DNA of 64,000 nucleotides from Salipiger thiooxidans (GTDB lineage: Bacteria; Pseudomonadota; Alphaproteobacteria; Rhodobacterales; Rhodobacteraceae). Positions within the stretch are counted from its first letter, which is position 1, and each line of letters opens with the position of its first letter. The position numbers were made by a program, and so were the translations under genes. The stretch lies in contig NZ_FNAV01000002.1 of assembly GCF_900102075.1 (NCBI RefSeq), positions 1 through 64,000 on the forward strand. Reading direction: 5' to 3'. Shown here piece by piece: positions 2,143 through 15,237 of this stretch. Below the pieces are notes generated by a model. The model did not search any database, was not told where the DNA came from, and saw nothing but the letters and a program-made list of their open reading frames with translations.

Positions 2143-2178
2143 CCGGCGAACATAGGAATCGCACCGCCGTGCTGTCAA
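2139..2178 (-). promoter_or_regulatory. Sigma-70 promoter with overlapping palindromic operator, late region
   Basis: Minus strand TTGACA (2178-2173), 18-base spacer, TATGTT (2154-2149). The imperfect palindrome TGTTC-N4-GAACA (2139-2152) covers the end of the -10 element and the expected start site, a place where a bound repressor would block initiation. The palindrome does not match the GGGGTATTGATACCCC operators of the CI region, so a different regulator would be involved. Confidence 0.55.
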
Positions 2179-2804: not shown

Positions 2805-2807
2805 ACC

Positions 2808-3278
2808 TTGGGGTCTGTATTGCTGGATAGCGGGCCACTGGTCCTGTTCCTGTGTGGTTCTGTGCAGCCTGATCTTGTTGGGACGGGTAAGACTAAAAAT
2901 CATAATCTAAAAATGTTCCAGAGGCTCGTCGCAGAGATTGAAGATTTGAGTAATCATATTTCATTGCCGAATGTTCTGACCGAAGCTTCTAATCATTTGG
3001 GATCAGGGCAACAACAAGCGGTTAAAAATGCCGCGAGTGCCTTGAGTGCCTACATCCTTAGCCTTGAAGAGATATATCTGCCTAGTATCGAGGTTGTTAA
3101 AATCGTTGAATATATGGAAGTTGGGCTTGCCGATGCAGCAATTATCTCATGTGTTCCTCGACTGAGGAAAGAGAAGGTTAGAGTCTTTACGCAAGACTGG
3201 GAATTGTACAATCGACTTTCAAGCCTTGAGGTCGACTGCGTAAATATCATGCATTGGCGCACTCCTTCAAATAGGTAA
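2808..3278 (+). CDS. PIN-domain-like nuclease
   Basis: 156 aa, TTG start at 2808 (a second in-frame TTG at 2820 gives MLDSGPL). It carries the acidic residues expected of a PIN RNase: Asp7 in LLDSGPL, Glu59 in LTEASNHL, Asp109 in GLADAAII and Asp130 in VFTQDWEL. PIN proteins usually cleave RNA and many are VapC-type toxins of toxin-antitoxin pairs. Its length is slightly above a typical VapC (about 130-140 aa). The AT-richer composition, orientation against the phage operons and tight coupling to the preceding gene point to acquired cargo. Toxin function is inferred, not shown. Confidence 0.72.
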   Translation: MGSVLLDSGPLVLFLCGSVQPDLVGTGKTKNHNLKMFQRLVAEIEDLSNHISLPNVLTEASNHLGSGQQQAVKNAASALSAYILSLEEIYLPSIEVVKIVEYMEVGLADAAIISCVPRLRKEKVRVFTQDWELYNRLSSLEVDCVNIMHWRTPSNR

Positions 3279-3437
3279 ACCAACAGAATACCACGATGTG
3301 TGTCTGTATCGTCGTTGACGCACGGCACCAACTCAGCGTGGATCGCTGCGCTGGACCCTCCGCTTCCGGTCTGACACCAGTCATCCGCGGCACCTGGCAC
3401 GAAGGGCGGCTATGGGCCGCGTGCGGCGGGGAGCGCG

Positions 3438-4106
3438 CTATGTGCTGCTCCCCACCGCAAGCCCCACGAGCGTCTCGCCCGTGGTGGTGACGGAATTCTC
3501 ACGACCGAACAGGTCGAAGCGCACCTTGACCCCGCCAACGGTGTCGATCTCGACCACCTCGCATGGCATACCCTCGAACGGTCCCGCCCGGAACATGGCC
3601 CGATCCCCGGCCCGCACGCGCCCTGCCGCTGCAGCCCGCCGCTTCTGCTCCTGCCGCTCGTCCTCTTGCCGCAGATCCCGCGCACGCATCTCGTGGAGTG
3701 CGGCCAGGCGCTTGGGCCCGAGCACACCCCATTGACCATCCGACCGGCAGAGCGCGCCGGTGAGAAACGGCGAGCTTAGCACGCGGTGCGGGATGGGGAT
3801 GCCGTCGAAGCGCGCGAAGACGTATCCAGGCAAGTACCGGCGCTCGTATTCCCGGAGCTTCCCCCGCATCCGGGTCCGACGCGAGGTGACGGGATGGAAG
3901 GCATAGACGCCGCGCGCCGCCAGCCAGCTTTCCGCATGGCGTTCCTGCTGCGGCCGGCAGAGCAGCGCGTACCAGGCGCTTTCGCCTCGGTCGAAGATGG
4001 CAACCGAACTGCCCTCAGTCGGGACCGCATCGCCAACGCGGAGACCGAGGTAGGGACGGACCGCCTCGCCCGATGTCCGCTTCCCGTTCGAACCGAGCGC
4101 GCTCAT
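3438..4106 (-). CDS. Phage NusG-family transcription elongation/antitermination factor
   Basis: 222 aa. Residues about 44-120 form a NusG N-terminal domain (AWYALLCRPQQERHAESWL, then YLPGYVFARF), which in NusG and RfaH contacts RNA polymerase. Residues about 163-205 form a KOW domain (RVRAGDRAMFRAGPFEGMPC). They are joined by a charged helical linker (about 130-160). A 40-residue N-terminal extension is unusual. It is the last gene of the early minus-strand operon and overlaps the gene before it by ATGA. NusG paralogues (RfaH, LoaP) act as operon-specific antiterminators; here the position corresponds to lambda Q, so control of the late terminator at 2006-2034 is a reasonable inference. Confidence 0.85.
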   Translation of the reverse strand: MSALGSNGKRTSGEAVRPYLGLRVGDAVPTEGSSVAIFDRGESAWYALLCRPQQERHAESWLAARGVYAFHPVTSRRTRMRGKLREYERRYLPGYVFARFDGIPIPHRVLSSPFLTGALCRSDGQWGVLGPKRLAALHEMRARDLRQEDERQEQKRRAAAAGRVRAGDRAMFRAGPFEGMPCEVVEIDTVGGVKVRFDLFGRENSVTTTGETLVGLAVGSST

Positions 4107-4684
4107 TCCACGCCCTCCGGCAGCAGTGCCAAGGCGCGCGCCTCGTCCCGCCGATGCCAGGCAAGCCACTGCAGATCATCGTCGCTCGCTACACCGCGGC
4201 GTTCCCGGTCCGCGCGAACGCGGTAGTCGCTGTCGAGCTCGCGCGCCTTCTCGCGGACCATGCGCTTTTCGCCATCCTTGAGCGGCGGACGCTTGAACTT
4301 CTCCCAGAACCGGAACTCGGCCAGCAGGCGGTTCTCACGATGGGCCTCGGCGCCGGCAGCGCTCCGGAACCAGCGGGTCAGCGCCGGAACCTCCTCGAGC
4401 GGGCGCGGCTGCGCCGCCTCGGCCAGCGGCATGATCGTCGCCATGCGCGGCCAGCCCCGCCGGTCCTTGCCCTCGCCGCGATACCTGAGCGCAGCGCGGA
4501 GATCCTCGAGCTTCTCATCGTGCATGTGGCTCAGCTCGTCGGCGAGATCCCTCAGGAACTTCGCGTGGCGCTCGGCCGACACGCCGCCGGGCTTGCGAAA
4601 GCCGTGCTCGGTCAGCGGGTCGATCAGCAGGCGGCGCACCCGGTCCCGCTTGGTCTCGGTCTTCGAGGTCTGCTCGTCGGTCAT
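4103..4684 (-). CDS. Conserved-looking phage protein of unknown function
   Basis: 193 aa starting MTDEQTSKTETKRDR, with AAGGGA about 9 bases upstream. It is highly charged and probably all-helical. An N-terminal segment resembles a basic helix (RDRVRRLLIDPL), and the middle holds a W/F-rich stretch (RWFRSA…FRFWEKFKRPP). No enzymatic motif or DNA-binding motif is recognised. It sits between the replication initiator and the NusG-like gene, overlapping the latter by ATGA, so it belongs to the replication part of the early operon. A helicase-loader role would fit the position but nothing in the sequence shows it. Confidence 0.7.
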   Translation of the reverse strand: MTDEQTSKTETKRDRVRRLLIDPLTEHGFRKPGGVSAERHAKFLRDLADELSHMHDEKLEDLRAALRYRGEGKDRRGWPRMATIMPLAEAAQPRPLEEVPALTRWFRSAAGAEAHRENRLLAEFRFWEKFKRPPLKDGEKRMVREKARELDSDYRVRADRERRGVASDDDLQWLAWHRRDEARALALLPEGVE

Positions 4685-4698
4685 CGTCCGTCCCTTTC

Positions 4699-5382
4699 TC
4701 AGCAAAGGCCCGACCGCTCACGCTCTTGCGGCGTGAGAAGGTTCGCGGCGAGGATGTGGTCCAGGATCCACGGCCTGAGGTCCGAGAGGGCATCGGCATG
4801 CCCGTCCCGGAAGCGCTCGACGGCGCGCTCGGCATCGCGGATCACCATGGGGTTTTCGGAAGGCTTCGGCGCGGTCGCGCGCGCCCCATGGTTTTTACAT
4901 GGTTCTGCCTTTATATAGGCGGGTCCGGATTTGACCCCTTTTTGGGTCTGATCTGACCCCTTTTGAGAGCCGTATAAGGGTTCAGATCGCGACCCTTTTA
5001 GTGGGCCTGATTTGAACCCTTTTAGGGCAACGACACGTCCCCGCGTCAGGAAGCCGTACCCGCTCGCCCGGCCCCGCCCGCGACCGGTGATCCGGGTCAT
5101 CCATCCGGCCTCGACAAGCTCCGAGATCGCCCGCTTGATCGTCGAGCGGGAGCGCCCGGTCAGCGCCTCCAGGGCCGGGATCGACGGGTCGCACTGGACG
5201 GTATGCTTGTTCGCGAAGTCGAGCACGAAGACGTGCGCAAGCATCTGCGCCTGCGCACTCAGGTCCGGGTCGCGCCGAACGCTTTCGAGCCAGCCGAAGC
5301 GCTGGTGTTGCCACTCGTCGGGCCCGATCAACCTGGTGCCCTCCGGAGCGGCAAACTCGTATTCTCTCGCAGCATGAGCCAC
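4699..5382 (-). CDS. Phage replication initiator with winged-helix domain (lambda O-like role)
   Basis: 227 aa. Residues about 60-110 form a helix-turn-helix/winged helix (SIPALEALTGRSRSTIKRAI, then ELVEAGWMTRI) as in phage and plasmid replication initiators. The middle (about residues 117-155) is a low-complexity stretch rich in KG, KS and GP that is encoded by four DNA iterons. The C-terminal part (DAERAVERFRDGHADALSDL) is helical and may recruit a partner. An initiator whose own gene contains its binding repeats is the arrangement of lambda O and its origin. The gene lies mid-way in the minus-strand early operon. Confidence 0.75.
   Translation of the reverse strand: MAHAAREYEFAAPEGTRLIGPDEWQHQRFGWLESVRRDPDLSAQAQMLAHVFVLDFANKHTVQCDPSIPALEALTGRSRSTIKRAISELVEAGWMTRITGRGRGRASGYGFLTRGRVVALKGFKSGPLKGSRSEPLYGSQKGSDQTQKGVKSGPAYIKAEPCKNHGARATAPKPSENPMVIRDAERAVERFRDGHADALSDLRPWILDHILAANLLTPQERERSGLC
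4927..5025. repeat. Four iterons inside the initiator gene: candidate phage origin of replication
   Basis: Four 17-19 bp direct repeats read on the plus strand: GGATTTGACCCCTTTTTG (4927-4944), TGATCTGACCCCTTTTGAG (4949-4967), AGATCGCGACCCTTTTAG (4984-5001) and TGATTTGAACCCTTTTAG (5008-5025). The shared core is GAT-T-GA-CCCTTTT. Repeat-to-repeat distances are 22, 35 and 24 bases. An AT-rich segment with a GCCT-ttatat-AGGC hairpin lies next to them near 4905-4920 and could serve as the unwinding element. Confidence 0.65.
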
Positions 5383-5507
5383 GACACACCTCTCGACAGG
5401 TTCGGCGCACGACCTCTTCGGGCCGCAACGCGGGTGATGCGATCCGAACGGACCGCCTGCTTGTCGTTCTGTTCGCGGGGGCAGGGATCTGCGCCCCGGT
5501 CCCCCGC

Positions 5508-5855
5508 TCAGCCCCCCTCACGTGGCACGTGAGAAGGAATTCGTTGTCCGCCCATGGTCGGGTCCCGCGCTCGGGCCGCCCAGTAGCGCGCCAGCGCCCG
5601 TCCAAGCCGATCCCGCCGATGGTCGAAGACGGGCACGTTGCCGTCCCGAACCGCGTCGACCAGGTCGCACGCCGCTTCCGCCGCCTCACTCACGTCCGAC
5701 GGCGGCGCCCGGTCGGCAAAGGCGCAGAGCGCGATCTTCAGATGCCCCGCGAGCTCCACGCACTCCACCAGCCCGCCGCGACACATCGCGACCGCTGTGG
5801 CGGCGATGATCACGCGCGGCACCGGCTCGGAATCGGCCTCATCAAGCCACGTCAT
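5508..5855 (-). CDS. Phage protein of unknown function
   Basis: 115 aa, starting MTWLDEADSEPVPRVII. It is rich in alanine and acidic residues and probably helical; no motif is recognised. Its start overlaps the stop of the next gene upstream by ATGA, placing it in the early operon between the DnaA-like protein and the replication initiator. The frame is kept because of this coupling and because antisense frames in the region show no features. Confidence 0.6.
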   Translation of the reverse strand: MTWLDEADSEPVPRVIIAATAVAMCRGGLVECVELAGHLKIALCAFADRAPPSDVSEAAEAACDLVDAVRDGNVPVFDHRRDRLGRALARYWAARARDPTMGGQRIPSHVPREGG

Positions 5856-6118
5856 GGCAGCCCCTCACGATCCTGCACGGCAACCTCCGTCGCATCTCGG
5901 AACTGCCGAAGGCTCGCGACAGCGGTCTCGAGATCGGCAACGAATGCATCGAAGGACGGCCCGTCGAGAGAGCCGTTCACCACCGGCGGCCCGCCTTCGA
6001 AGCCCTCCGGTCGCAGCGACCAGCCGCGCGACCCGCAGTCGAGCCGCACAAGGCGCAGGATCAGATGGCCGAAGGGGACGGTCACGCTCTGGGTGATGTG
6101 GGCCCGCCTCGCGCTCAT
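5852..6118 (-). CDS. Small phage protein of unknown function
   Basis: 88 aa. The N-terminal half (HITQSVTVPFGHLILRLVRL) looks like a beta-hairpin and the C-terminal half (FDAFVADLETAVASLRQF) like an amphipathic helix. It overlaps both neighbours by ATGA. No family recognised. Confidence 0.6.
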   Translation of the reverse strand: MSARRAHITQSVTVPFGHLILRLVRLDCGSRGWSLRPEGFEGGPPVVNGSLDGPSFDAFVADLETAVASLRQFRDATEVAVQDREGLP

Positions 6119-6537
6119 GCCGCACCCGCCAGGCTGATCGCCACCTGCACGCGCAGCTTCGCCTTCGCGGCCCGCGCGCGCGCCTCGGTGATGCCGTGCT
6201 GAATCGTGCTGGGGTCCCGGCTGAAGTAGTCGCCGATCTCGAGCGATGAGAGCCCTGCCCTGCTCATGACCAGGAAGGCCTCCTGCCGAGCGACGACAAG
6301 CGCCTTGATCCGCGAGGGGCCGCGCATGACGGCCAGCTTCACGCCATGCTTGGCGGCAACCCGCGCCGCGATGATGTCTGTCGCCTCTATGGGGAGATCC
6401 GCCAGCACCTGCAGCCCTTCCGAGGTCATGGTCCCGATCAGCTCGGCGAGCTTTTCACGCCGCTCGGCAGCGTGGCGGAGCTCCATCTCCTCCCAGCTCT
6501 CGACCCGACGACGGGCATTCTCCTTCGACCCCGTCAC
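6115..6537 (-). CDS. DnaA domain-IV-like DNA-binding protein
   Basis: 140 aa from a GTG at 6537 with GAGGG upstream; longer in-frame starts up to 6819 would run through the terminator at 6553-6586 and are unlikely. The C-terminal part (about residues 80-125) contains IKALVVARQEAFLVMSRAG, LSSLEIGDYFSRDPSTIQHG, the pattern of the DnaA box-binding domain (R..A.yL.r…S..eIG..F..rD.sTv.ha). The AAA+ domain of DnaA is absent. Stand-alone domain-IV proteins occur in phages of this family; they may help at the phage origin or compete with host DnaA. First gene after the leader terminator of the early operon. Confidence 0.72.
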   Translation of the reverse strand: MTGSKENARRRVESWEEMELRHAAERREKLAELIGTMTSEGLQVLADLPIEATDIIAARVAAKHGVKLAVMRGPSRIKALVVARQEAFLVMSRAGLSSLEIGDYFSRDPSTIQHGITEARARAAKAKLRVQVAISLAGAA

Positions 6538-6552
6538 CGCGGCGCCCTCGGC

Positions 6553-6586
6553 ATGAAAGACCCCGGTGCCGTGGGCGACACCGGGG
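6553..6586 (-). terminator. Intrinsic terminator within the early operon (tR1-like position)
   Basis: Perfect 8-bp stem CCCCGGTG/CACCGGGG with a 10-nt loop, followed on the minus strand by TCTTTC. It lies in a roughly 250-base gap (6538-6787) between the cII-position HTH gene and the replication genes. In lambda a terminator (tR1) sits at the same place and limits replication-gene expression until antitermination. No other gene is supported in this gap. Confidence 0.65.
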
Positions 6587-6787
6587 CAAGGCCTGACAGG
6601 AAGCTGCGCCGGGTCCCGGCGGCGCTCCAGATCTGAGAGGACGCGCGAGGCGGAGTGGCCTCGGAGGAAGAGAGGTGGCCACCGTGGGACACCGCCCCGC
6701 GCGTGAGGTGGCAGAGGGCCTGTTCCCCCGCCTGGCAGGTCCGGACAGGCCGGACGTACGAAAGTCTTGAACCGGAACGGGCAGGCA

Positions 6788-7117
6788 TCAGGCCGCCCTT
6801 TTCGCGTCCGCCGCGACAACAGCCGCGAGGTGATCCAGGAAGCCGGGGCATTCCAGCGTTGCGATCATCACCTTGTCGGCGGTCGGGCGGGTCGTGCCGT
6901 TCCACCAGTTCCAGGCCGTGCTGTTTCGCACCTCGAAGAACCCGGCGACATCCTCAGGGCGCCGAAAGGCGCCGCGCAGCCAGTCCGACCAGATCTCGGC
7001 CGCGATGACCTGCATCCGGTATCGGTCCAAAGCTTTGGACCGCGACACGCGCGGGAACACTGAGTCAGCGTCGCCGCATGGTTCATTCGATACGACGAGT
7101 TTCAGATTGTTTGTCAT
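6788..7117 (-). CDS. Phage HTH regulator in the cII position
   Basis: 109 aa. Residues about 40-90 (WSDWLRGAFRRPEDVAGFFE, then VRNSTAWNWWNGTTRPTAD) look like a helix-turn-helix in which a tryptophan-rich recognition segment selects DNA. It overlaps the Cro-like gene upstream by ATGA. The position right after cro is that of lambda cII, but the sequence is not a recognisable CII; call by position only. Confidence 0.65.
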   Translation of the reverse strand: MTNNLKLVVSNEPCGDADSVFPRVSRSKALDRYRMQVIAAEIWSDWLRGAFRRPEDVAGFFEVRNSTAWNWWNGTTRPTADKVMIATLECPGFLDHLAAVVAADAKRAA

Positions 7118-7314
7118 GCGGCGTCCTCGGTCGGGGGATTCTCGGCCATGAACTCACGCAGCTTGTCGACGCGGGTCATCGTCGGGCTCGACTTTCGCGA
7201 CTTCCACGATCCCCATTCTCGCCAGCCCGCGCCTATGGCATCGCGCAGCACCGCCTGCGGGGTACGTCCTACCGAGGCAGCGTAGGCCTCAACTTCTGCG
7301 ATCAACTGCTCCAT
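7114..7314 (-). CDS. Cro-like small DNA-binding protein
   Basis: 66 aa, first gene leftward from the divergent CI control region. The sequence (AVLRDAIGAGWREWGSWKSR, then KSSPTMTRVDKLREFMAENP) has the length and helix pattern of short Cro/YdaS-like regulators. Its promoter overlaps the 7327-7342 operator. Expected role: early repressor that switches off the CI promoter and so favours lysis; inferred from position and size. Confidence 0.68.
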   Translation of the reverse strand: MEQLIAEVEAYAASVGRTPQAVLRDAIGAGWREWGSWKSRKSSPTMTRVDKLREFMAENPPTEDAA

Positions 7315-7326
7315 GGTCAGGTTTAT

Positions 7327-7368
7327 GGGGTATTGCTACCCCATCTGGCAAGGGTAATTTGCACCCCT
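7327..7368. promoter_or_regulatory. Divergent cI/cro control region with two operators (O_R-like)
   Basis: GGGGTATTGCTACCCC (7327-7342) is a 16-bp near-palindrome; AGGGTAATTTGCACCCC (7351-7367) is a weaker copy with one extra base. For cro (minus) TTGCCA and CATAAA are spaced about 18 bases across the first operator. For cI (plus) TTGCTA (7333-7338), a 16-base spacer and TAATTT (7355-7360) make a promoter overlapping both. Repressor binding here would therefore control both directions. Confidence 0.72.
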
Positions 7369-7384
7369 AGCGAAGCCGGACGCC

Positions 7385-8038
7385 ATGATTGACAAAATCG
7401 CTATGGCCCGCACGTTCATCGAAGCGCTACAACACGCCCTTGCTGTGACCGGGCGCTCCGTCCGCAGCTTAGCTTCGGAGACCGGTATCCCGTATGAGCG
7501 CTTAAAACAGGTGGCTCGCGGACGAACTGCAACAACGAATGCTGATGACGCCTATCTCATCGCAAGGGCATTCGGCGGGACTTACGAGCAGTTCATGGAC
7601 GGCAGCCTGATACACCCCCAGACAATTGCGATAGCAGGCAAGGTTGGGGCTGGCGCCAAGGTTCCCGTCTTTGACGCCTACTTGAAGGGCGACGGCCCTC
7701 AGGTTGAGTGCCCTCCGGGCCTATCGGCATCTGGCGTGGTCGCAGTAGAGATCGAAGGCGACAGCATGGAGCCGATCTATAGCGACGGCGACCTTCTCTT
7801 CTATACCCGGGTCAGCCACGACGGCGTACCGGATGACGTAGTCGGGCACCGTTGCGTTGTGGAGGACGAGGACGGGATGGGCTGGGTTAAGCAAGTAAAG
7901 GCTGGCGATGAACCAGGCCTCTTCCACCTTATCTCGCTAAATCCTGGCGCGCACAACATGTGGAACAAGCGCCTTAAATGGGCCGCTGCAGTCCGCCTTC
8001 ATTGGCCAGCAGACCTCGCTCGGAAATCGCACGGCTAG
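7385..8038 (+). CDS. Prophage CI/LexA-type repressor
   Basis: 217 aa. An N-terminal helix-turn-helix (about residues 18-60, RSVRSLASETGIPYERLKQV) is followed by an S24 self-cleavage domain with catalytic Ser127 in IEGDSMEP and Lys169 in GWVKQV. An Ala-Gly pair in the hinge (IAGKVGAGAKV, residues 83-93) offers a cleavage site. Such repressors maintain lysogeny by binding paired operators and self-cleave when RecA is activated by DNA damage. Operators are seen directly upstream and again at 9266-9310. No clear ribosome site lies before the ATG, as for lambda cI made from its maintenance promoter. Confidence 0.88.
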   Translation: MIDKIAMARTFIEALQHALAVTGRSVRSLASETGIPYERLKQVARGRTATTNADDAYLIARAFGGTYEQFMDGSLIHPQTIAIAGKVGAGAKVPVFDAYLKGDGPQVECPPGLSASGVVAVEIEGDSMEPIYSDGDLLFYTRVSHDGVPDDVVGHRCVVEDEDGMGWVKQVKAGDEPGLFHLISLNPGAHNMWNKRLKWAAAVRLHWPADLARKSHG

Positions 8039-8081
8039 CGCAAAAAAACCTAGACTCCCAGAGAACGCGCATCTCACGCTT

Positions 8082-8096
8082 ATTCGGCACCCGAAT
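8082..8096. promoter_or_regulatory. Inverted repeat upstream of the orphan nuclease gene
   Basis: ATTCGG-CAC-CCGAAT, perfect 6-bp arms, 20 bases before the start at 8117, with TTAGGAG as ribosome site in between. No T-run follows, so an operator or a translation-modulating hairpin is more likely than a terminator. Confidence 0.4.
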
Positions 8097-8116
8097 CGCA
8101 TCGTTAGGAGTAAAGA

Positions 8117-9184
8117 ATGAGCAGTTTCGCTGAGCAGATGGAAACCCTTGCTGCGAGATCGAAGTCAGCGGAGCGCCAAGCCCTGACCGAAGAAGCGACA
8201 AAAACCGCTGTCGTTCTCCCGTTCATCCAATCCCTTGGCTTCGACGTCTTCAATCTAGACGAAGTAATGCCAGAGTTCGTCGCCGACGTCGGGACAAAGA
8301 AGGGTGAGAAAGTCGATTTCGCGATCAAGATCGATGGCAAGATTGCCATGCTCGTTGAAGCGAAGCCGATCAACAGCAAGCTCGGCGAAACTCAGTTCAG
8401 CCAGCTTTTCAGATACTTCCACGTCACTGAAGCTCGCCTTGCCATACTCACCAATGGCAAGGAGGCCTGGTTCTTCTCAGACATAGATGAACCGAACAAG
8501 ATGGACAGCAAGCCTTTCTTTAAGTTCGACTTCCAAAACCATGACCGAGCACAGGTTCAGGAGATTGCCCGCTTCCAGAAGGAGTGCTTTGCCATTGACT
8601 CGATTGTCGAAGCGGCGTCCAACCTGAAATACACGCGCGCAGCCGCCAACTATCTTTCACAGCAAATGAACGAACCGGATGACGACTTCGTACGGCTTGT
8701 CGGACGACAGATCCACGAGGGCCCGATAACGAAGTCCGTGTCCGAGCAGCTTAAGCCCGCCATTCAGGCCGCATTGAATGAGATCATACGCAATCAGATC
8801 CAAGATAAATTAAGCATCACACTGGGCAGCTCAAATACCGCCCCCACACCGAAGCCCACGCCGACACATGAAGCTCCACAAGCCGAAATCGAAACCACTG
8901 AGGAAGAGATCGAGGGCTTCATGATCGTACGCGCTATCGCCGCAAAGCTTACCCCGGTCAGCCGAATCACCATTCGTGACGCCAAAAGTTACTGCGCCAT
9001 CCTAATGGATGATAACAACCGTCGCCCGATTTGCAGGCTATACTTCAACTCTGCGACAACGAAGAATATTGGGCTCTTTGACGAGAGCAAAACGGAAACA
9101 AGGGTTCGCGTAGATGGCCCCGGCGACATCTACAGCCATGCCGATGCGATCGAAGCGGTGGTGCAGAGCTATCTGAAGACCTAG
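8117..9184 (+). CDS. Orphan HsdR-N-type PD-(D/E)XK nuclease-like protein
   Basis: 355 aa. The N-terminal domain (about residues 20-160) matches the nuclease domain of type I restriction R subunits: VVLPFIQSLGFDVF, then Asp67 in EKVDFAI and the E-x-K of VEAKP (Glu81, Lys83), followed by a TNGKEAWFF strand. The helicase motor of HsdR is missing, and no hsdM or hsdS lies nearby. The C-terminal part (about 250-355) is a separate beta-rich domain. Stand-alone proteins of this type are common next to prophage repressors. A role in superinfection exclusion or host defence is plausible but not shown. Confidence 0.75.
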   Translation: MSSFAEQMETLAARSKSAERQALTEEATKTAVVLPFIQSLGFDVFNLDEVMPEFVADVGTKKGEKVDFAIKIDGKIAMLVEAKPINSKLGETQFSQLFRYFHVTEARLAILTNGKEAWFFSDIDEPNKMDSKPFFKFDFQNHDRAQVQEIARFQKECFAIDSIVEAASNLKYTRAAANYLSQQMNEPDDDFVRLVGRQIHEGPITKSVSEQLKPAIQAALNEIIRNQIQDKLSITLGSSNTAPTPKPTPTHEAPQAEIETTEEEIEGFMIVRAIAAKLTPVSRITIRDAKSYCAILMDDNNRRPICRLYFNSATTKNIGLFDESKTETRVRVDGPGDIYSHADAIEAVVQSYLKT

Positions 9185-9265
9185 CCAACCCACATCTCGG
9201 CACGCCAAAAGGCTGCACATAACGCTCCGCCGCCGCCCCCGGCGCGATGTGATGCCGTTCATTAT

Positions 9266-9318
9266 GGGGTATTGATACCCTTTTTCTATTGACAGGGGTA
9301 TCAATACCCCACTAGCGT
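9266..9318 (+). promoter_or_regulatory. Rightward early promoter with two repressor operators (O_L-like)
   Basis: GGGGTATTGATACCCT (9266-9281) and the perfect palindrome GGGGTATCAATACCCC (9295-9310) match the operator before cro. TTGACA (9289-9294) and TAGCGT (9313-9318) are spaced 18 bases, with the perfect operator filling the spacer. Repressor bound there would shut the operon 9345-14646. This is the clearest operator in the window. Confidence 0.78.
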
Positions 9319-9344
9319 GCCTTCATCAACCGATGGAGGCACTC

Positions 9345-9680
9345 ATGCCGAACAAGTACGTTCTCCCCGAAGAGGCGGCCTTCCTGACCAACCCGGAGGC
9401 CGCCGCCGCTGACCGCATCACCCGCCAAGATTTCTGGTTGCTCGCAAAGCAGCGGCAGGGACACCCAATTACCCACGAGGCAGGGAACCGCCTCCACGAC
9501 CTCGAAGCCCGCATTTCCGGACGCCCGACGCTCGTGCACGTTATCACCGACGGCGACCCCGAGCCCGAACCGCCCACGCCGGCGATGACCGAGGTCGAGG
9601 CCGGGCGCCAGCGTGCCCTGCCGGCAATCCACGCCGCCGTCGCCCGCAAGCTCCATCTTGGTGGCGGCGAGGCCGCATGA
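9345..9680 (+). CDS. First gene of the rightward early operon, unknown function
   Basis: 111 aa from ATG 9345 with GGAGG 7 bases upstream. The N-terminal half (FLTNPEAAAADRITRQDFWL) is helical, and a proline/glutamate-rich hinge (DPEPEPPTP) precedes a C-terminal helix. No motif is recognised. Being first behind the repressor-controlled promoter, it would be made immediately on induction. It overlaps the next gene by ATGA. Confidence 0.62.
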   Translation: MPNKYVLPEEAAFLTNPEAAAADRITRQDFWLLAKQRQGHPITHEAGNRLHDLEARISGRPTLVHVITDGDPEPEPPTPAMTEVEAGRQRALPAIHAAVARKLHLGGGEAA

Positions 9681-9922
9681 ACACCCACACGACAGCGCAA
9701 GCCATCACTCACGGACCCGCGCCTGTCCCGCTGCCGGGCGACCAGTTGTGGTATGCCCGGCAGCTTCGATCCCTACCCGGATGGCAGCTCGACGACGTCC
9801 CGGATGACGTGATGCTCGAGGCATGCACCGCGGTGATCGCACTCTCCGACGATGACACAGAGATCGCCTCGGCGCGCCGCCTGGCCCACCTGCTCTGCGG
9901 CGAGATCGCCGCCCCGAGATAA
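9677..9922 (+). CDS. Small phage protein of unknown function
   Basis: 81 aa, overlaps the gene before it by ATGA. LPGWQLDDVPDDVMLEACTA and the C-terminal SARRLAHLLCGEI suggest a small helical protein. Not recognised. Confidence 0.58.
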   Translation: MNTHTTAQAITHGPAPVPLPGDQLWYARQLRSLPGWQLDDVPDDVMLEACTAVIALSDDDTEIASARRLAHLLCGEIAAPR

Positions 9923-9947
9923 CCCATGCCGGGCGAGGTGCCCGCAT

Positions 9948-9988
9948 CCCCCTGCCGCAAATGCGATGCCGATGCGCGCGGCAGGGGG
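9948..9988 (+). promoter_or_regulatory. Long hairpin before the next ribosome-binding site
   Basis: Perfect 11-bp stem CCCCCTGCCGC / GCGGCAGGGGG with a 19-nt loop in the 93-base gap between two operon genes. It ends 11 bases before the AGGAG of the gene at 10016. No T-run; probably an mRNA stabiliser or translation control element. Confidence 0.5.
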
Positions 9989-10015
9989 CATCAGTTCAGA
10001 AGGAGAAGCCCCGTG

Positions 10016-10438
10016 ATGGCGAACAAGAAGCCCCCGGCGCAGGTCAACCGCCCTGAGCCCCACGACCCCTACAAGATGCGCAGCCTTGAGCAGATCCTGA
10101 CCCTGTTCGATGGCGGCAGCTTCCTCGCCGACGTGATGGAACGCCACCAGAGCCTGATGCAGGATCTCATGGACCATCTCGAGGAGCACGGGCCGAAGGG
10201 CTGCGCAGGTTCCATGAGCATCACGATCGACTACGCCGTCGGCAATTCCGGCGATGTCGGCATGGGCGCCAAGGTCGAGTTCAAGCCGCCGAAGAAGCCC
10301 AAGAGCAGCGCCGCCGCCTTCATCAACGATGCGGGCGAGCTCACCCTCTACAGCCCGATGATGGCGCGCATGCACCAACCGGTCCGGGACGTCACCGACT
10401 TCGATCCGGAGACCGGCGAAGTGCGCGACGTCGACTGA
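10016..10438 (+). CDS. Phage early-operon protein of unknown function
   Basis: 140 aa from ATG 10016, preceded by AGGAG. The middle (SMSITIDYAVGNSGDVGMGA) is beta-rich and followed by a lysine-proline patch (KPPKKPKS) and a C-terminal acidic tail (DFDPETGEVRDVD). It is followed after 24 bases by the DUF2303 gene, a pairing I expect in prophages of this bacterial family. Function unknown. Confidence 0.62.
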   Translation: MANKKPPAQVNRPEPHDPYKMRSLEQILTLFDGGSFLADVMERHQSLMQDLMDHLEEHGPKGCAGSMSITIDYAVGNSGDVGMGAKVEFKPPKKPKSSAAAFINDAGELTLYSPMMARMHQPVRDVTDFDPETGEVRDVD

Positions 10439-10462
10439 TCACCCCAACCACGGAGACACCAG

Positions 10463-11452
10463 ATGTCCGAAGACCTCATCCCCATGCAGAACCCCGCCGA
10501 GACGATGCGGGACATCATGGCCGACATCGGCCACCACGACCCGGTCGAGACGCCGGATGGGCTCGACCTTACCAAGCCCCACCTGGTCACGCTGCCCAAC
10601 CACCGCAAGGTCGAGAACCTCACGACGCACCACCGCGCCGCTCTGGAGTTCCTGAAACCCGCGCGGCGGAGCGGCACCGCGAAGCTCAAGGACCTCGACA
10701 GCCTCATCCTCTGGGCCAATCGTTTCAAGGGCGACACCTCGGCGCTCTTCGCGAACCCTGAGATGAGCGCTCCCACGCTCACCTGCATCGCCGACTACCA
10801 CGGCGCCGGCGCCATCGACCCCCTGAACCCGGAAGGCGACCCGACCGCGCGGCACTGCCACCACCGCGCGGTCTACGGCTTCCCCCTCTCCAAGGAGTGG
10901 CAGGCGTGGATGGGGATCTCGGGGCGCGCCCTCGACAAGGACGAGATGGGCGAGTTCATCGAGGCGAACGCGAAGGACATCATGGACCCGACGCCGCCGG
11001 TGCTGGCGCTCACCGAGAACGACAAGAACCAGCCCTGGGAGAACCGTCTGATCCAGACAGCGCGGCAGATCGAGGGCCGCTACGGCCAGCTGGGCCAGCT
11101 GCTCGCGATGTCGCGCCGCTTCCAGGTCTACGAGACCAGCGACCTGACGGTGAAGACCAACCGCGACACCGGCGAGAGCGAGATCCAGTTCCTCAACGAG
11201 CACAAGGACGCCGACGGCAAGCCGCTCAGCGTGCCGAACCTGATCATCATCACGATCCCCGTGTTCCTGAACGGCGCCCCTTACCGGATGCCGGTGCGCT
11301 TCCGCTACCGGAAGTCGGGATCCGCCGTGAAGTTCATCCTGTCGATCTACAACCCGGAAAGGGCGTTCGAAGCCGCCTTCGACGAGGCGCTCAAGATCGC
11401 GGCCGACGCCACCGAGCTCCCCATCTTCCAGGGCCACCCCGAATCCAGCTGA
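10463..11452 (+). CDS. DUF2303 (YfdQ-like) phage protein
   Basis: 329 aa, GGAG ahead of the ATG. It matches the DUF2303/YfdQ type by length and by the pattern of its blocks: HRKVENLTTHHRAALEFLKP near the N-terminus, LILWANRFK, TLTCIADYHGAG, HRAVYGFPLSKEWQAWM, and a C-terminal VKFILSIYNPERAFEAAF. The family occurs in early regions of many prophages, including E. coli CPS-53, and has no known biochemical role. Intact. Confidence 0.8.
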   Translation: MSEDLIPMQNPAETMRDIMADIGHHDPVETPDGLDLTKPHLVTLPNHRKVENLTTHHRAALEFLKPARRSGTAKLKDLDSLILWANRFKGDTSALFANPEMSAPTLTCIADYHGAGAIDPLNPEGDPTARHCHHRAVYGFPLSKEWQAWMGISGRALDKDEMGEFIEANAKDIMDPTPPVLALTENDKNQPWENRLIQTARQIEGRYGQLGQLLAMSRRFQVYETSDLTVKTNRDTGESEIQFLNEHKDADGKPLSVPNLIIITIPVFLNGAPYRMPVRFRYRKSGSAVKFILSIYNPERAFEAAFDEALKIAADATELPIFQGHPESS

Positions 11453-11513
11453 TGCCCATGTCAGCGCCCCGGCAGCGGGGCGTTGCGATGGTCACCAGCG
11501 CAGGAGGACATCC

Positions 11514-11732
11514 ATGCACAGCGAAGACTATTTCCAGCGGACCTGCGCCGAGAAGCCCAAGGGTGCATTCTGGCGCTTCATCGAGAAGCTCGCCGAGTAC
11601 CCGGATGAGCCCAGCAGGATGTCCGCATGGAGCATCGTCCTGATCGGCGGCGGACTCACCGGCCTCGGAGCGATCTGGGGCCTCGGCTGGCTCATCGCGA
11701 CCGCGATCAAGGCGGCGGGGTGGGACGGATGA
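11514..11732 (+). CDS. Small single-span membrane protein
   Basis: 72 aa with one predicted membrane helix at about residues 40-66 (IVLIGGGLTGLGAIWGLGWL) and a charged N-terminal part that would stay in the cytoplasm. AGGAGG precedes the ATG by 6 bases. Overlaps the next gene by ATGA. Early-expressed small phage membrane proteins often affect host envelope or exclude other phages; that is conjecture here. Confidence 0.6.
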   Translation: MHSEDYFQRTCAEKPKGAFWRFIEKLAEYPDEPSRMSAWSIVLIGGGLTGLGAIWGLGWLIATAIKAAGWDG

Positions 11733-12175
11733 AGAACAAGCTCACCGATCTCAACAACCACCTCTTCGCCCAGCTCGAGCGCCTGTCCGACGAGAACCTC
11801 GAAACCGACGCCATCGATCGCGAGGTGAAGCGCACCGAGGCGATGAAGTCGCGACTGAAATCAAAAGTCCCGGACGTGGCTACAACCACGGCCGGGACCG
11901 ATGATACTCGAAAATCGATGTCCGTCGCCCGGAGCTCCAGCCGCAATAGACTGATGCAACATATCGCTGGGCACTCGTACCAAACCAACCACTCACGGAC
12001 ACCTATATACCTGTCAGAGTTGAACGATTCTGCCAATTCACGCCCGGAAGGGCATAAGCGTGGGAGACCTATCCGTTCGGATCAACCACAGTGCTTTTGC
12101 CCGCCGGTGGCCGAGGCGCTGGCCAGGGCAAACTGCGGGCACCTGGTTGCGGCAAGCGTGGAGGTGGAGGCATGA
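11729..12175 (+). CDS. Phage protein with a conserved short N-terminus and an atypical C-terminal extension
   Basis: 148 aa. The first 38 residues (MKNKLTDLNNHLFAQLERLS, then DREVKRTEAM) match a common prophage protein of about 75 aa. After that the sequence no longer follows the family: it becomes serine-, arginine- and histidine-rich, contains a strong DNA hairpin (11867-11898), and uses codons unlike its neighbours. The frame nevertheless stays open to an ATGA overlap at 12172. It may be a family member whose 3' half was replaced by an insertion or recombination, with the far part (about 12050-12175) belonging to another gene. Treat as a doubtful fusion. Confidence 0.45.
   Translation: MKNKLTDLNNHLFAQLERLSDENLETDAIDREVKRTEAMKSRLKSKVPDVATTTAGTDDTRKSMSVARSSSRNRLMQHIAGHSYQTNHSRTPIYLSELNDSANSRPEGHKRGRPIRSDQPQCFCPPVAEALARANCGHLVAASVEVEA
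11867..11898 (+). other. Strong GC hairpin within the 11729-12175 frame
   Basis: GTCCCGG-AC-GTGG-ctacaa-CCAC-GG-CCGGGAC: 7-bp and 4-bp stems separated by a 2x2 internal loop, 6-nt loop. Neither a downstream T-run nor an obvious binding site is present. It coincides with the point where the gene departs from its family. Confidence 0.55.
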
Positions 12176-12357
12176 CCACCCCGACACGCGGACAGCAACG
12201 GCAGATCGCCGACTACCTGGACCACATCGCGGACCAGAAGCTGAACTGCTCCCAGCTCGGATCAGCTGACCCGATGACCGCCAACCGAATTGCTCTCGGG
12301 GCAGCATACCGTCTGGTCGCCGCAGACATGCGCGCGCTCGCGGACAGCGAAGGCTGA
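12172..12357 (+). CDS. Small phage protein of unknown function
   Basis: 61 aa from ATG 12172, coupled to the previous frame by ATGA. Sequence QQRQIADYLDHIADQKLNCS and NRIALGAAYRLVAADMRALA suggests two helices. Not recognised. Confidence 0.5.
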   Translation: MTTPTRGQQRQIADYLDHIADQKLNCSQLGSADPMTANRIALGAAYRLVAADMRALADSEG

Positions 12358-12382
12358 AATCAAACAATCGTCGGAGGCAAAC

Positions 12383-12901
12383 ATGATCGTCACCCAGGAA
12401 TGGACCCACGCCCTCACCTGCATGCAGCAGACCGTGCTGCTGACCGCGATCCGCGGGCCGGACGGCGTCGCGAAGTATCACCCGTCGAAGTACATGATCC
12501 GTTGGTTCCGCCGCTGCGTGCTGCTGGGCGCCTTGGATCACAACGTGTTCGAGAACCCCTACGACCCGCGGGGCGGCAGCTTCACCGGGCCGAGCTACAG
12601 CTGGTCGCCGGCGATCCCGCACGAGGAAAGCTGGACCGTGCATATGCAGCCGGTCTTCGACAGATACCTGCAGTCGCTAGACGAGCTGCCCCACCATTTC
12701 CAGCTGCACTTCATGCACGCGGCAGAGATCATCGGCTACAAGCACCCAGACCCGCTGATCCGCGACTGGTGGAACTACGTCTACCGCGAGCTTGCCAACG
12801 ACATGCACCTCAACGTCGAGACCGAGGAAGAGCTCGACTTTCGCCTCGGCGACAGCGAGGCCCAGTGGCGCGCCAAGAGCAGCAAGGCGACGCAGGCATG
12901 A
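12383..12901 (+). CDS. Phage protein of unknown function, tryptophan/histidine-rich
   Basis: 172 aa, CGGAGG 6 bases before the ATG at 12383. Several conserved-looking aromatic and histidine patches (SKYMIRWFRRC, ELPHHFQLHFMHAAEIIGYK, RDWWNYVYRELANDMHLN) suggest a compact folded protein, possibly metal-binding, but no catalytic motif is recognised. ATGA overlap with the next gene. Confidence 0.65.
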   Translation: MIVTQEWTHALTCMQQTVLLTAIRGPDGVAKYHPSKYMIRWFRRCVLLGALDHNVFENPYDPRGGSFTGPSYSWSPAIPHEESWTVHMQPVFDRYLQSLDELPHHFQLHFMHAAEIIGYKHPDPLIRDWWNYVYRELANDMHLNVETEEELDFRLGDSEAQWRAKSSKATQA

Positions 12902-13167
12902 CCAACACCACCACCAACCGCATGAAGCGGCTCATCGCGGACATCTCCGAGCACGGTGCGACACCGAGCCGGGTGAAGAAGATCACCAACGCGCTGCGGG
13001 CCGTGACGGCCGAGCGCGATGCGGCTGCCGATCGGGTAAAAAAGCTCGAGCGCCTCGTGGAGCTCGCGGACGCGCGGTGTGAGATCTGCGCGGATCCGGC
13101 CACGACGCTCGATAGCGCCGGAGACGCGGCGTGTGCGGCATGTGCCGCCAAGGAGGAGCGCGAATGA
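12898..13167 (+). CDS. Small coiled-coil protein with C-terminal zinc-finger-like cysteines
   Basis: 89 aa. A long helix (about residues 8-58, NALRAVTAERDAAADRVKKL) is followed by two CxxC pairs (CEICADP … CAAC) about 19 residues apart, the spacing of a small zinc ribbon. Coupled by ATGA on both sides. Function unknown; a DNA- or RNA-binding role is possible. Confidence 0.58.
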   Translation: MTNTTTNRMKRLIADISEHGATPSRVKKITNALRAVTAERDAAADRVKKLERLVELADARCEICADPATTLDSAGDAACAACAAKEERE

Positions 13168-13466
13168 TGCCGAAGCGCATTCAGATGACACGACGCAAAG
13201 GCGGCTGGCGCAAAGATCACCCCGACGCTGTCGTGGTCGCGAGACCGTCGAAATGGGGCAATCCCTACCAGGGCGATGGTCGTGGCGTTGACCGAGCGAT
13301 GTTGGCGAGCCTGTTCGGCGAGCTGATGAAGCGACCGGAAAAGTCAGCTTTCGTCGAAGAGGTTAGACGCGAGCTACGCGGCAAGGATCTCGCGTGTTGG
13401 TGTCCCTTGGACGGCCCGTGCCACGCCGACGTGTTGCTTGAAATCGCGAACAGGGAGCGCGAGTGA
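13164..13466 (+). CDS. DUF4326-type phage protein
   Basis: 100 aa starting MMPKRIQMTRRKGGWRKDHP. It shows the DUF4326 pattern: VVARPSKWGNPYQ near the start and DLACWCPLDGPCHADVLLEI at the end, with a conserved CWC…C cysteine set. The family is common in phages and has no established function. ATGA overlap with the gene before; nearly overlapping the short gene after. Confidence 0.72.
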   Translation: MMPKRIQMTRRKGGWRKDHPDAVVVARPSKWGNPYQGDGRGVDRAMLASLFGELMKRPEKSAFVEEVRRELRGKDLACWCPLDGPCHADVLLEIANRERE

Positions 13467-13642
13467 TGCCAACGCCTCACCAGCCGGAACCGCCGAAATG
13501 GCTCACAGAGGCTGCGCAGGTATGCCAGAATACCGGCGTCACCATCACCATCGAACACCAGTCCCGCGTCTACAAGATAGCGCCCACCGCGGCCGAGCGG
13601 AACGGCGACGAGCCTGACTTCGTGAACTGGAACCGCAAGTGA
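13466..13642 (+). CDS. Very short phage gene just before the integrase
   Basis: 58 aa from ATG 13466 (a GTG at 13463 is also in frame), sequence MPTPHQPEPPKWLTEAAQVC…, ending DFVNWNRK. Its first base is the last base of the preceding stop codon and its own stop overlaps the integrase GTG start, so translation passes from gene to gene. The central VTITIEHQSRVYKIAP looks like a beta-hairpin. An excisionase would be expected in this spot, but no helix-turn-helix is evident. Confidence 0.55.
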   Translation: MPTPHQPEPPKWLTEAAQVCQNTGVTITIEHQSRVYKIAPTAAERNGDEPDFVNWNRK

Positions 13643-14646
13643 AGAGAAGCCTCCCCGCCTACGTCTACGCCCGAGGAAAGAAGGGCTACCTCTACTTCGT
13701 CCGTGGCGGGATCTGCCAGCGTATCCACAGCGAGCCTGGCACTGCCGAGTTCGCCTCAGACTACGCCCGCCTGATGCGGGGTCGTGTCGCGACGCCGAAA
13801 CAGACCATATCCAAGCTGATTGAACTTTGGATGCGCTCGCCGAAGTGGGCGAAGTACGCGCACAACACGCGGCGCGGGCACGAGCGGCACCTACTCTATC
13901 TCAGCGAGACCGCCGGAAATGTTGACCCGGCCAAGCTCAGAACGGTTCATGTCTACGAGATGCGGGATGCACTAGCCGACAAGCCGACTGATGCAAACAG
14001 GAAGCTCGACACACTCGTTGCGCTGCTGAACTACGGTATCCAGATCGGATGGCTTGATCGTAACCCGGCGCATGGGGTCGAACGGCTGGACCCAGCTGGA
14101 AGGAAGCGCAAGCCTTGGCCCGTCGACCTCATAGAAGCATTCCGCGCGGAAGCTGAAGGCCGAACACTGCTGCTCTTCGAGATGCTGCTAGGGACCGGAC
14201 AACGCATCAATGACGTGCTGTCCCTGCGCTGGTCTGATCTCGACGGGGACGGCTTCCCCCTCACTCAGGGGAAAACGAAGAAAGAGCTCTACATCCCTCT
14301 CACAGACCGCCTTCGGACCGTTCTTGATGCTGAGAAGCGCAAGGGGCTGTTCATCATCTGCCACGACGACGGCCGACGCATCAGCTACCAGCTTGCGCAC
14401 AAGGACATCATGGCAGTGCGCAAGAAGATCGGCGCGGAAGACTACGACATTCACGCGCTTCGCTACGCCGCCGCGACCGAGATCGCGTCCATCCCCGGCA
14501 TGACGAACGAGCACATCCAGGCAATCACCGGCCACGCGGATGCGACCATGATCCGGCTCTATGCTGGCGCGGCCGTGCAGCGGGCGCGAGCCGAAGAGGC
14601 GCAGAAAGCGCGCCGGGACAGAACGAATACGAAAAGCGAACACTGA
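13639..14646 (+). CDS. int: Tyrosine site-specific integrase
   Basis: 335 aa from GTG 13639. The catalytic set is complete: Arg189 in GTGQRINDVL, a lysine in GKTKKE near 213, His272 and Arg275 in IHALRY, His299 in TGHADATMI and nucleophile Tyr308 in RLYAG. The N-terminal half (about 50-130) is the core-binding SAM-like domain. It inserts and excises the prophage, and lies 40-80 bases from the junction within ctrA, as expected for the integrase end of an element. Last gene of the repressor-controlled rightward operon. Confidence 0.93.
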   Translation: MKRSLPAYVYARGKKGYLYFVRGGICQRIHSEPGTAEFASDYARLMRGRVATPKQTISKLIELWMRSPKWAKYAHNTRRGHERHLLYLSETAGNVDPAKLRTVHVYEMRDALADKPTDANRKLDTLVALLNYGIQIGWLDRNPAHGVERLDPAGRKRKPWPVDLIEAFRAEAEGRTLLLFEMLLGTGQRINDVLSLRWSDLDGDGFPLTQGKTKKELYIPLTDRLRTVLDAEKRKGLFIICHDDGRRISYQLAHKDIMAVRKKIGAEDYDIHALRYAAATEIASIPGMTNEHIQAITGHADATMIRLYAGAAVQRARAEEAQKARRDRTNTKSEH

Positions 14647-14725
14647 AACGGATTTGAAACGCAAAAATATTTTACAATAATATCAGCACCATAAGTGACA
14701 ATATAGATGATTGAGGAACATCTCC
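14644..14725. other. Attachment-site region (prophage end in ctrA)
   Basis: Between the integrase stop and the recognisable ctrA sequence lies AT-rich DNA with a direct repeat TGAAACG (14644-14650 and 14655-14661, one helical turn apart), a plausible arm-type integrase site. On the ctrA strand the gene reads ACCAAGGAGATGTTCCTCAA and then AT-rich codons for NHLY before leaving the CtrA sequence. The crossover core is therefore probably within about 14703-14725; the exact overlap cannot be set without the other end. Confidence 0.7.
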
Positions 14726-15237
14726 TTGGTCAGGGTGGTGCCCTTGCGCAGCGAGAGCAGCTCGAGCATCTGGTATTCCTTGCCGGTCAGATGCACCGCC
14801 TTGCCGCCGACCTCGACCGTCTTGGCGTCGAGGTTGACCGAGATCTTGCCAGTGCGGATGACCGACTGCGAATGGCCCTTGGAGCGGCGGATGATGGCGT
14901 GGATGCGCGCCACCAGCTCATCGCGGTGGAAGGGCTTGGTGAGGTAATCGTCGGCGCCGAAGCCGAATCCCTTGATCTTGTTCTCGGTGTCGTCGGCCCC
15001 GGAGAGAATCAGGATGGGCGTGTTGATTCGGGACATCCGGAGCTGGCGCAGCACTTCGTGCCCGTTGATGTCGGGCAGGTTGAGGTCCAGCAGGATCAGG
15101 TCGTAATCGTAGAGCCGGGCCAGGTCGATGCCTTCCTCGCCGAGATCGGTGGCATAAACGTTGAGATTGGCATGCGTCAGCATCAATTCGATGCTCTTCG
15201 ACGTGGTCGGATCGTCTTCCACCAGAAGGATGCGCAT
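14683..15237 (-). pseudogene. ctrA: CtrA response regulator, truncated by the prophage
   Basis: 184 aa instead of about 235-240. The receiver domain (1-120) is complete with phospho-acceptor Asp51 and KPFH. The winged-helix output domain begins ([32 protein letters not shown]) but ends at Tyr179, followed by CHLWC and a stop supplied by phage DNA. The expected continuation ([20 protein letters not shown]), which forms the recognition helix, and the wing are gone. CtrA controls cell-cycle genes in Caulobacter and motility and gene transfer agent genes in Rhodobacteraceae, where it is dispensable. The product could still be phosphorylated and perhaps dimerise, but should not bind DNA. Confidence 0.9.

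What the first reader, a model, noticed from the sequence alone, without database searches (positions are those of the whole stretch)
14683..14725. Prophage integrated inside ctrA, removing the DNA-recognition part of the master regulator
Seen: ctrA reads normally to Tyr179 (…EMFLNHLY) and then ends CHLWC-stop in AT-rich DNA 37 bases from the integrase stop. The codons for NHLY are AT-rich (AAT CAT CTA TAT), so the phage copy mimics the first residues beyond the crossover but does not rebuild the gene. Known: in Rhodobacteraceae CtrA is not essential and drives gene transfer agent, motility and related genes. Inference: lysogeny switches off the CtrA regulon, possibly blocking GTA release and lysis, and excision could restore the gene, an active-lysogeny switch like the phages in Listeria comK. 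I do not know of a described case at ctrA.
Basis: partly seen in the sequence, partly recalled or inferred. Interest (0 to 1): 0.86.

Follow-up and report, generated by a model that had tools for sequence, protein, structure and literature searches.

The report
Prophages that cut ctrA in two
A temperate phage has inserted itself into the gene for CtrA, the regulator that switches on swimming and gene-transfer particles in related marine bacteria, and other, largely different phages have done the same at the same spot, so carrying the phage probably turns this regulator off.

Summary
ctrA (15237 to 14683, minus strand) is cut by a prophage whose integrase end fills the window to 14710. The crossover is a 7-base core, TCCTCAA, over codons 174-176; the last HLY is already phage DNA. 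No second ctrA was found (next best regulator 38% identical). The genus is Salipiger: of 20 genomes, this one included, 4 are split at this core, 15 intact, 1 frameshifted. The four prophages share 3-13% of their DNA, the integrase end in every pair, so they are different phages with one integration module. Eight IMG/VR records show the same junction. Paracoccus phage Pkon1, published in 2019 as mitomycin C-inducible and disrupting an 'OmpR regulator', has a related integrase and the same core, so the site is in print, without the name CtrA. Lysogeny very probably removes CtrA function (inferred). An active-lysogeny switch is possible but unshown; an S24-type repressor suggests ordinary SOS induction. 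Whether the loss helps the phage is untested; ctrA is also broken or missing without a phage in some relatives.

The parts
1..14710 (+). Right arm of the prophage (the left arm is on contig C66; the stretch between is not assembled)
   Evidence: Window 1 is the start of contig C30; repressor, endonuclease and integrase families; 1-2197 is 98% identical to the end of contig C18
7385..8038 (+). CI-like repressor with a Peptidase_S24 domain
   Evidence: phrog_4 transcriptional repressor E 2.9e-13; PF00717 34.8 bits against cut-off 23.3
13463..13642 (+). 59-residue ORF directly upstream of the integrase; possible recombination directionality factor (a guess)
   Evidence: tblastn matches in L058 (83%), and weakly in L092 (33%, E 6e-4) and L090 (34%, E 1e-3), each upstream of an integrase; no Pfam match up to E 0.1
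13639..14646 (+). Tyrosine-recombinase integrase, 335 residues
   Evidence: PF00589, E 7.3e-20; 82-86% identical to the integrases at ctrA in three other Salipiger genomes
14683..14710 (-). Phage-side arm of attR; read in the ctrA frame it gives the last base of Asn176, HLY, CHLWC and a stop
   Evidence: Comparison of both junctions in four genomes
14711..14717 (-). Crossover core TCCTCAA (codons 174-176 of ctrA)
   Evidence: Identical at attL and attR within each of four genomes; TTCTCAA on both sides in G006
14711..15237 (-). 5' remnant of ctrA: whole receiver domain and the start of the DNA-binding domain
   Evidence: PF00072 at residues 3-112; PF00486 matched at 1-35 of 77 (residues 145-179), below its cut-off; NF045991 CtrA equivalog 330.6 bits against cut-off 350, versus 431.2 for an intact orthologue

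Best explanation
A temperate tailed phage integrates by a tyrosine recombinase at a 7-base core inside the coding sequence of ctrA (codons 174-176 of 238). The lysogen keeps a CtrA with its receiver domain and only the first part of its winged helix. The rest of the gene is stranded at the far end of the prophage; in this genome the phage side supplies an in-frame ATG for a 72-residue fragment. The phage does not rebuild the gene, so the lysogen should have no working CtrA (inferred), and precise excision would restore it (shown only by joining the flanks on paper). Related integrases have brought largely different phages to the same codons in four Salipiger genomes and in other, unnamed hosts, and very probably in Paracoccus, where the gene was published as an OmpR regulator. 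The S24-type repressor points to ordinary DNA-damage induction, so excision is probably coupled to lysis in most cells. From published ctrA mutants of Rhodobacter capsulatus, Dinoroseobacter and Phaeobacter, the expected result is loss of flagellar and GTA expression without loss of viability.
For: ctrA 5' part and stop. ctrA 3' part beside phage left arm, with tape measure, tail fibre and amidase genes in that arm. No other orthologue found, next best 38%. Joined flanks give 238 residues in 4 of 4 genomes. 4 of 20 Salipiger genomes split at the same core. The four prophages share 3-13% of DNA pairwise, and the integrase end is a shared block in 6 of 6 pairs. The 9 ctrA-labelled integrases of the tree fall in one 100/100 clade with two others. 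IMG/VR: 8 of 33 loci with a CtrA C-terminal match have it fused to non-ctrA DNA at the same residue; two more have ctrA ending at residue 178/179 beside an integrase. Pkon1: same core, mitomycin C-induced, 'disrupted' an OmpR regulator gene. Published ctrA-mutant phenotypes (passages). GTA marker present in all four lysogens.
Against: No expression, motility, GTA or induction data exist here for these strains. The truncated protein keeps its receiver domain and could still act, for example as a phosphate sink. The middle of this prophage is not assembled, so its completeness is unknown. That the Paracoccus gene is ctrA rests on a 13-base attB, the label 'OmpR' and the ctrA remnants beside two Pkon1-like records (L109, L110); I did not see the host gene. 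The ctrA 5' part has not decayed in the lysogens (0, 1, 1, 0 private replacements in codons 1-173), which fits recent insertion as well as frequent excision.
Confidence: 0.86

Rival explanations
1. Tolerated site: the integrase uses ctrA only because it is conserved and dispensable in Rhodobacterales. Loss of CtrA is a side effect with no benefit to the phage.
For: CtrA is reported as not essential in the Rhodobacterales examined (PMC4046655 passage). ctrA is lost by other routes too: in two further genera of the family sample it is broken by what looks like insertion elements at residues near 125 and 118 (G396, G025; element type recalled, not searched), it looks frameshifted in G008, G065 and G259, and about 28 of 394 genomes have no close match (counted by eye). 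An integrase 80% identical uses another site, at the start of rlmJ, in the same genome. The prophages carry no excess of CtrA motifs.
Against: The same codons are used with integrases down to about 50% identity and with largely different phages, which a costly neutral site need not show. Phages in conserved genes often rebuild them (recalled; three of the five Paracoccus phages rebuild a tRNA gene); here that is not so.
Confidence: 0.55
2. Active lysogeny: a subpopulation excises the prophage without lysis to restore ctrA when motility or GTA is useful, as described for Listeria comK.
For: Joined flanks restore ctrA exactly. The ctrA 5' part is not decaying. The insertion is in the coding sequence of a regulator and is recurrent.
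Against: An S24-type repressor gene suggests SOS-coupled induction, and mitomycin C released Pkon1 as particles. No uninterrupted ctrA is in this assembly; attP was not searched for. Recent insertion explains the lack of decay equally well.
Confidence: 0.12
3. Phage benefit: destroying CtrA silences GTA, flagella and CtrA-dependent resident prophages, protecting the lysogen and excluding competitors.
For: An R. capsulatus ctrA deletion is resistant to phage Jorvik (PMC10589892 passage). In Phaeobacter CtrA-phosphorelay mutants GTA is not expressed, and one of the two most repressed chromosome regions is a 35.6 kb prophage (PMC12363192 passages). GTA marker kept in the lysogens.
Against: Not tested in these hosts. 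In the family sample a confirmed prophage split was seen in 2 of 394 genomes, both Salipiger. ctrA is also lost without a phage in some relatives.
Confidence: 0.22
4. Assembly artefact or contamination joining phage DNA to ctrA.
For: The window begins at a contig end, and the prophage shares near-identical DNA with a second prophage in the same genome.
Against: Both junctions were found in this genome with the same core. Three other genomes show both junctions on a single contig. The core follows the local sequence variant in G006.
Confidence: 0.02

Closest known systems
Paracoccus phage vB_PkoS_Pkon1 and prophage vB_PpaP_PD15 (Decewicz et al. 2019, PMC6536676; passages read)
   Same: Related integrase (Pkon1: 55.5% identical to the window's over 92%); same core; insertion into an 'OmpR family' regulator gene; a siphovirus and a podovirus with 92.7% similar integrases both in such a gene. 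Pkon1 is inducible.
   Different: The gene was not named ctrA; other host genus; Pkon1 shares at most 2% of its DNA with the Salipiger prophages.
Listeria monocytogenes comK prophage, 'active lysogeny' (recalled; paper listings only)
   Same: A prophage splits a regulator gene that precise excision would restore.
   Different: No evidence of excision without lysis here; unrelated host; the integrases were not compared.
Staphylococcus aureus phiSa3 in hlb (listing and start of abstract)
   Same: A prophage inactivates a host gene by insertion; the paper's title calls it a regulatory switch.
   Different: There the target is an enzyme gene; here it is a global transcription regulator.
CtrA-dependent alphaproteobacterial phages (Mascolo et al. 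2022, PMC9437464, abstract and passages; Jorvik, PMC10589892, passages)
   Same: Phage life cycles tied to host CtrA.
   Different: Those phages use CtrA; these break its gene and show no excess of TTAA-N7-TTAA motifs.

Membership tests
CtrA response regulator (NCBIfam NF045991) | Score above the curated cut-off over the whole protein | tested here: not met
   330.6 bits against 350 for the truncated product; 431.2 for the intact orthologue of a relative
CtrA response regulator (NCBIfam NF045991) | Complete receiver domain | tested here: met
   PF00072 at residues 3-112, profile 1-110 of 111
CtrA response regulator (NCBIfam NF045991) | Complete winged-helix DNA-binding domain | tested here: not met
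   PF00486 positions 1-35 of 77 only
Phage tyrosine recombinase integrase | Catalytic-domain match and conserved catalytic residues | tested here: met
   PF00589 E 7.3e-20; R189, H272, R275, H299 and Y308 invariant in 8 of 8 rows (their catalytic role is recalled)
Phage tyrosine recombinase integrase | Short identical core at both prophage ends | tested here: met
   7 bases, 4 of 4 Salipiger genomes
Active lysogeny (phage regulatory switch) | Prophage inside a host gene that precise excision would restore | tested here: met
   Joined flanks give 238 residues in 4 of 4 genomes
Active lysogeny (phage regulatory switch) | Excision without lysis under host conditions | not testable with these tools
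   Needs quantitative PCR or reads
Gene-disrupting prophage (negative lysogenic conversion) | Host gene broken and not rebuilt by the phage | tested here: met
   After Tyr179 the frame stops after 5, 0, 0 and 5 residues in G000, G018, G019 and G006; no GGMDEP continuation
Gene-disrupting prophage (negative lysogenic conversion) | Loss of phenotype in the lysogen | not testable with these tools
   No bench data

The most novel reading that the evidence does not exclude
A lineage of integrases, shared among largely different phages, targets the ctrA core of Rhodobacterales because knocking out CtrA is useful to the prophage: it shuts down the gene transfer agent and its lysis, the flagellum that other phages may adsorb to, and CtrA-activated rival prophages, so that one phage holds the cell until excision restores ctrA.
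Probability: 0.2. Interest if true: 0.82.

Novelty: new member of a known kind. Interest (0 to 1): 0.6.

Why it matters
CtrA controls flagella and the gene transfer agent in the Rhodobacterales studied. If lysogeny by phages with this integrase removes it, then motility and gene-transfer ability of an isolate, including the sequenced strain S. bermudensis HTCC2601 (G019 here), may depend on the prophage it carries, and species described from one lysogenic isolate may be misread. It also offers natural ctrA knock-outs with a ready control, the cured strain, for asking whether a phage gains by switching off CtrA.

Tried and rejected
Second ctrA copy: searched the own genome, none found. Phage-encoded replacement of the ctrA 3' end: rejected, the attR frame stops within 5 residues in the four Salipiger genomes. 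CtrA-binding sites in the prophages: exact TTAA-N7-TTAA 0 in all 7 sets scanned; with up to one mismatch 0-2, inside the range of 30 first-order resamplings. Decay of ctrA in lysogens: none seen in codons 1-173.

The family sample (394 genomes, one for nearly every genus) is a weak census: its match list was cut, so I judged most genomes by best E alone. Eleven low scorers were re-examined. G236, G161, G036 and G290 are in one piece; G394, G412 and G367 are cut by contig ends (G394's two contigs overlap by intact ctrA); G065 and G259 look frameshifted; G396 and G025 are broken near residues 125 and 118 by other DNA that looks like insertion elements, not at the core. About 28 genomes with no match better than 1e-40 (counted by eye) were not looked at further.

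IMG/VR: of 33 C-terminal hits, 8 are fused to non-ctrA DNA, 19 have a contiguous N-terminal part, 6 are partial matches without one. In 4 of the 8 (L102, L103, L108, L110) no related integrase was found in the record at E 1e-10; records may be fragments. Of the 9 N-terminal hits only L092 and L099 fit the pattern.

Tree: L099 is on a long branch, so its place is unsure; the integrases of L101 and L104 were not in the tree. Integrases of about 46% identity and below in the family sample were found in genomes where I saw no ctrA split; most of their own target sites were not worked out.

Motility of HTCC2601: listings scanned, passages of two papers opened, nothing usable; the rest were not opened. 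'Not in print as ctrA' rests on (6 papers listed; 0; 15 of 16 listed; 8 of 9; 1; 12 of 46) in an open-licence library, judged from listings and the passages opened.

Full report
WHAT IS THERE. On the minus strand the ORF 15237-14683 reads as CtrA to EMFLNHLY and then CHLWC-stop. The integrase ORF 13639-14646 (plus strand) ends 37 positions before it and matches PF00589. The truncated product keeps the whole receiver domain but matches only positions 1-35 of the 77-position DNA-binding domain. It falls below the cut-off of the NCBI CtrA equivalog (330.6 bits against 350), while an intact relative scores 431.2.

THE OTHER END. The window is the start of contig C30 of a 68-contig genome, so the left end of the prophage is not in it. 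A search with the C-terminal part of a relative's CtrA found it on contig C66, 91% identical over 64 residues from LNHLY on, followed by 16 kb of DNA to the contig end with tail fibre, tape measure and amidase genes. In this genome the phage side supplies an ATG in frame, so the 3' part is open as a 72-residue ORF. No second ctrA was found: after ctrA itself the next best match is 38% identical.

THE CROSSOVER. Aligning both junctions in four genomes places the shared core at TCCTCAA (TTCTCAA in G006, on both sides), codons 174-176, window 14711-14717. Past the core the integrase-side junction continues with phage DNA that spells HLY, followed by a stop after 0 or 5 more residues. Joining the host flanks at the core gives an uninterrupted 238-residue protein in 4 of 4 genomes.

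RECURRENCE. The genus is Salipiger: the nearest integrases (82-86%) are in S. bermudensis DP6N14-6, AmN7-7 and HTCC2601. In the genus sample of 20 genomes, this one included, 15 have ctrA in one piece, 4 are split at the core (G000, G018, G006, G019), and G008 has a frameshift in a run of G at codon 180. In the three relatives both parts lie on one contig, about 40, 47 and 50 kb apart. At the DNA level the four prophages share 3-13% of their length pairwise (this genome's prophage was represented by its two arms, 30.8 kb). A block of 1.06-1.25 kb holding the integrase is shared in 6 of 6 pairs; the other shared blocks differ from pair to pair. So these are different phages with a common integration module.

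BEYOND SALIPIGER. In IMG/VR, 8 of 33 loci matching the CtrA C-terminus have it fused at the same residue to non-ctrA DNA. A related integrase (51-56% identical) was found in 4 of these 8 records: in three at the opposite end (L101, L104, L109), in one (L106) on the same side as the ctrA 3' part. Two further records have ctrA ending at residue 178/179 with an integrase (66% and 51%) nearby (L092, L099). In a tree of 35 integrases the 9 rows labelled ctrA (Pkon1 by its paper) fall in one clade supported 100/100 together with the pair C18/L082; L099 is on a long branch. The C18 prophage of the same genome sits at the start of rlmJ (PF04378), so the target has changed within the clade; the site of L082 is not known.

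ALREADY IN PRINT. Paracoccus phage Pkon1 has an integrase 55.5% identical over 92% of its length, and its record notes an 'attachment site in OmpR-family transcriptional regulator gene'. The paper (PMC6536676; passages read) gives attB GTTTCTCAA(G/C)CAT, says the gene was disrupted, reports mitomycin C induction, and notes a podovirus, PD15, with a 92.7% similar integrase also in an OmpR regulator gene. Two IMG/VR records whose last 112 phage bases match the end of Pkon1 at about 79% lie against a ctrA 3' part. I therefore read the Paracoccus target as ctrA; the word does not occur in that paper's main text. The paper searches listed no paper that, from listing or passages opened, names ctrA as an attachment site; several lists were cut.

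WHAT IT DOES. Shown: the gene is cut and not rebuilt. Inferred: the lysogen lacks CtrA function. From papers (passages): CtrA is not essential in the Rhodobacterales examined, controls flagella, and in R. capsulatus also GTA (PMC4046655); in Phaeobacter inhibens mutants of the CtrA phosphorelay flagellar genes are silenced, GTA is not expressed, and one of the two most repressed regions is a 35.6 kb prophage (PMC12363192); a ctrA deletion makes R. capsulatus resistant to phage Jorvik (PMC10589892). The GTA marker PF13547 is present and open in all four lysogens and in 19 of 20 genomes of the genus, so a silenced GTA is possible but unmeasured.

SWITCH OR NOT. For a switch: exact restoration on joining and no decay of the ctrA 5' part (private replacements 0, 1, 1, 0 in the lysogens, 0-4 in the other 16). 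Against: an S24-type repressor gene, particle release on mitomycin C for Pkon1, and recent insertion as an equally good reason for the lack of decay. The prophages show no excess of CtrA motifs, so I see no sign that they respond to CtrA.

BENEFIT OR TOLERANCE. Against a special benefit to the phage, ctrA is also broken without a phage: what look like insertion elements cut it in G396 and G025, and it looks frameshifted in G008, G065 and G259. About 28 of 394 genomes of the family sample have no close match (by eye). For a benefit stand the conserved target across divergent integrases and largely different phages and the published CtrA-dependence of GTA, a resident prophage and an infecting phage. 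I cannot decide between them here and favour tolerance.

VERDICT. It belongs to a known kind, gene-disrupting prophages, and the site was published under another name. Loss of CtrA function is likely; the switch and the phage benefit are open and easy to test.

Noticed in passing
L019:676-1458 and L058 (contig C18, about 116978): A second prophage of the same genome, with an integrase 80% identical, sits at the very start of rlmJ (PF04378); the gene stays open but is cut off from its upstream DNA.
   Followed up: partly
L143/L145 (G396) and L144 (G025): ctrA is broken near residues 125 and 118 by DNA that looks like insertion elements (type recalled, not searched) in two other genera.
   Followed up: partly
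L036 (G008), ctrA codon 180: ctrA is frameshifted in a run of seven G directly after the attachment core; sequencing error or another way of losing CtrA.
   Followed up: no
window 1-2197 and C18:124717-126913: 98% identical DNA ends both contigs at the same point, so a shared prophage segment was probably collapsed in assembly.
   Followed up: partly
L106 / L206 (IMG/VR record G440): Here the integrase end faces the ctrA 3' part, the reverse of the other cases, and more ctrA-like sequence (ATGTTCCTCAACC) is kept.
   Followed up: partly
L137 and L161 (G394): Two contigs end inside ctrA with an overlap of about codons 172-187, across the attachment core; the gene reads on intact, so this may be a plain contig break.
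   Followed up: partly
family sample: About 28 of 394 genomes (counted by eye from best E) have no CtrA match better than 1e-40, some nearly complete, such as G226.
   Followed up: no
L057:3843-4046 (minus): Small helix-turn-helix protein near the attL end (HTH_17, E 6.7e-05, below cut-off), a possible excisionase.
   Followed up: partly
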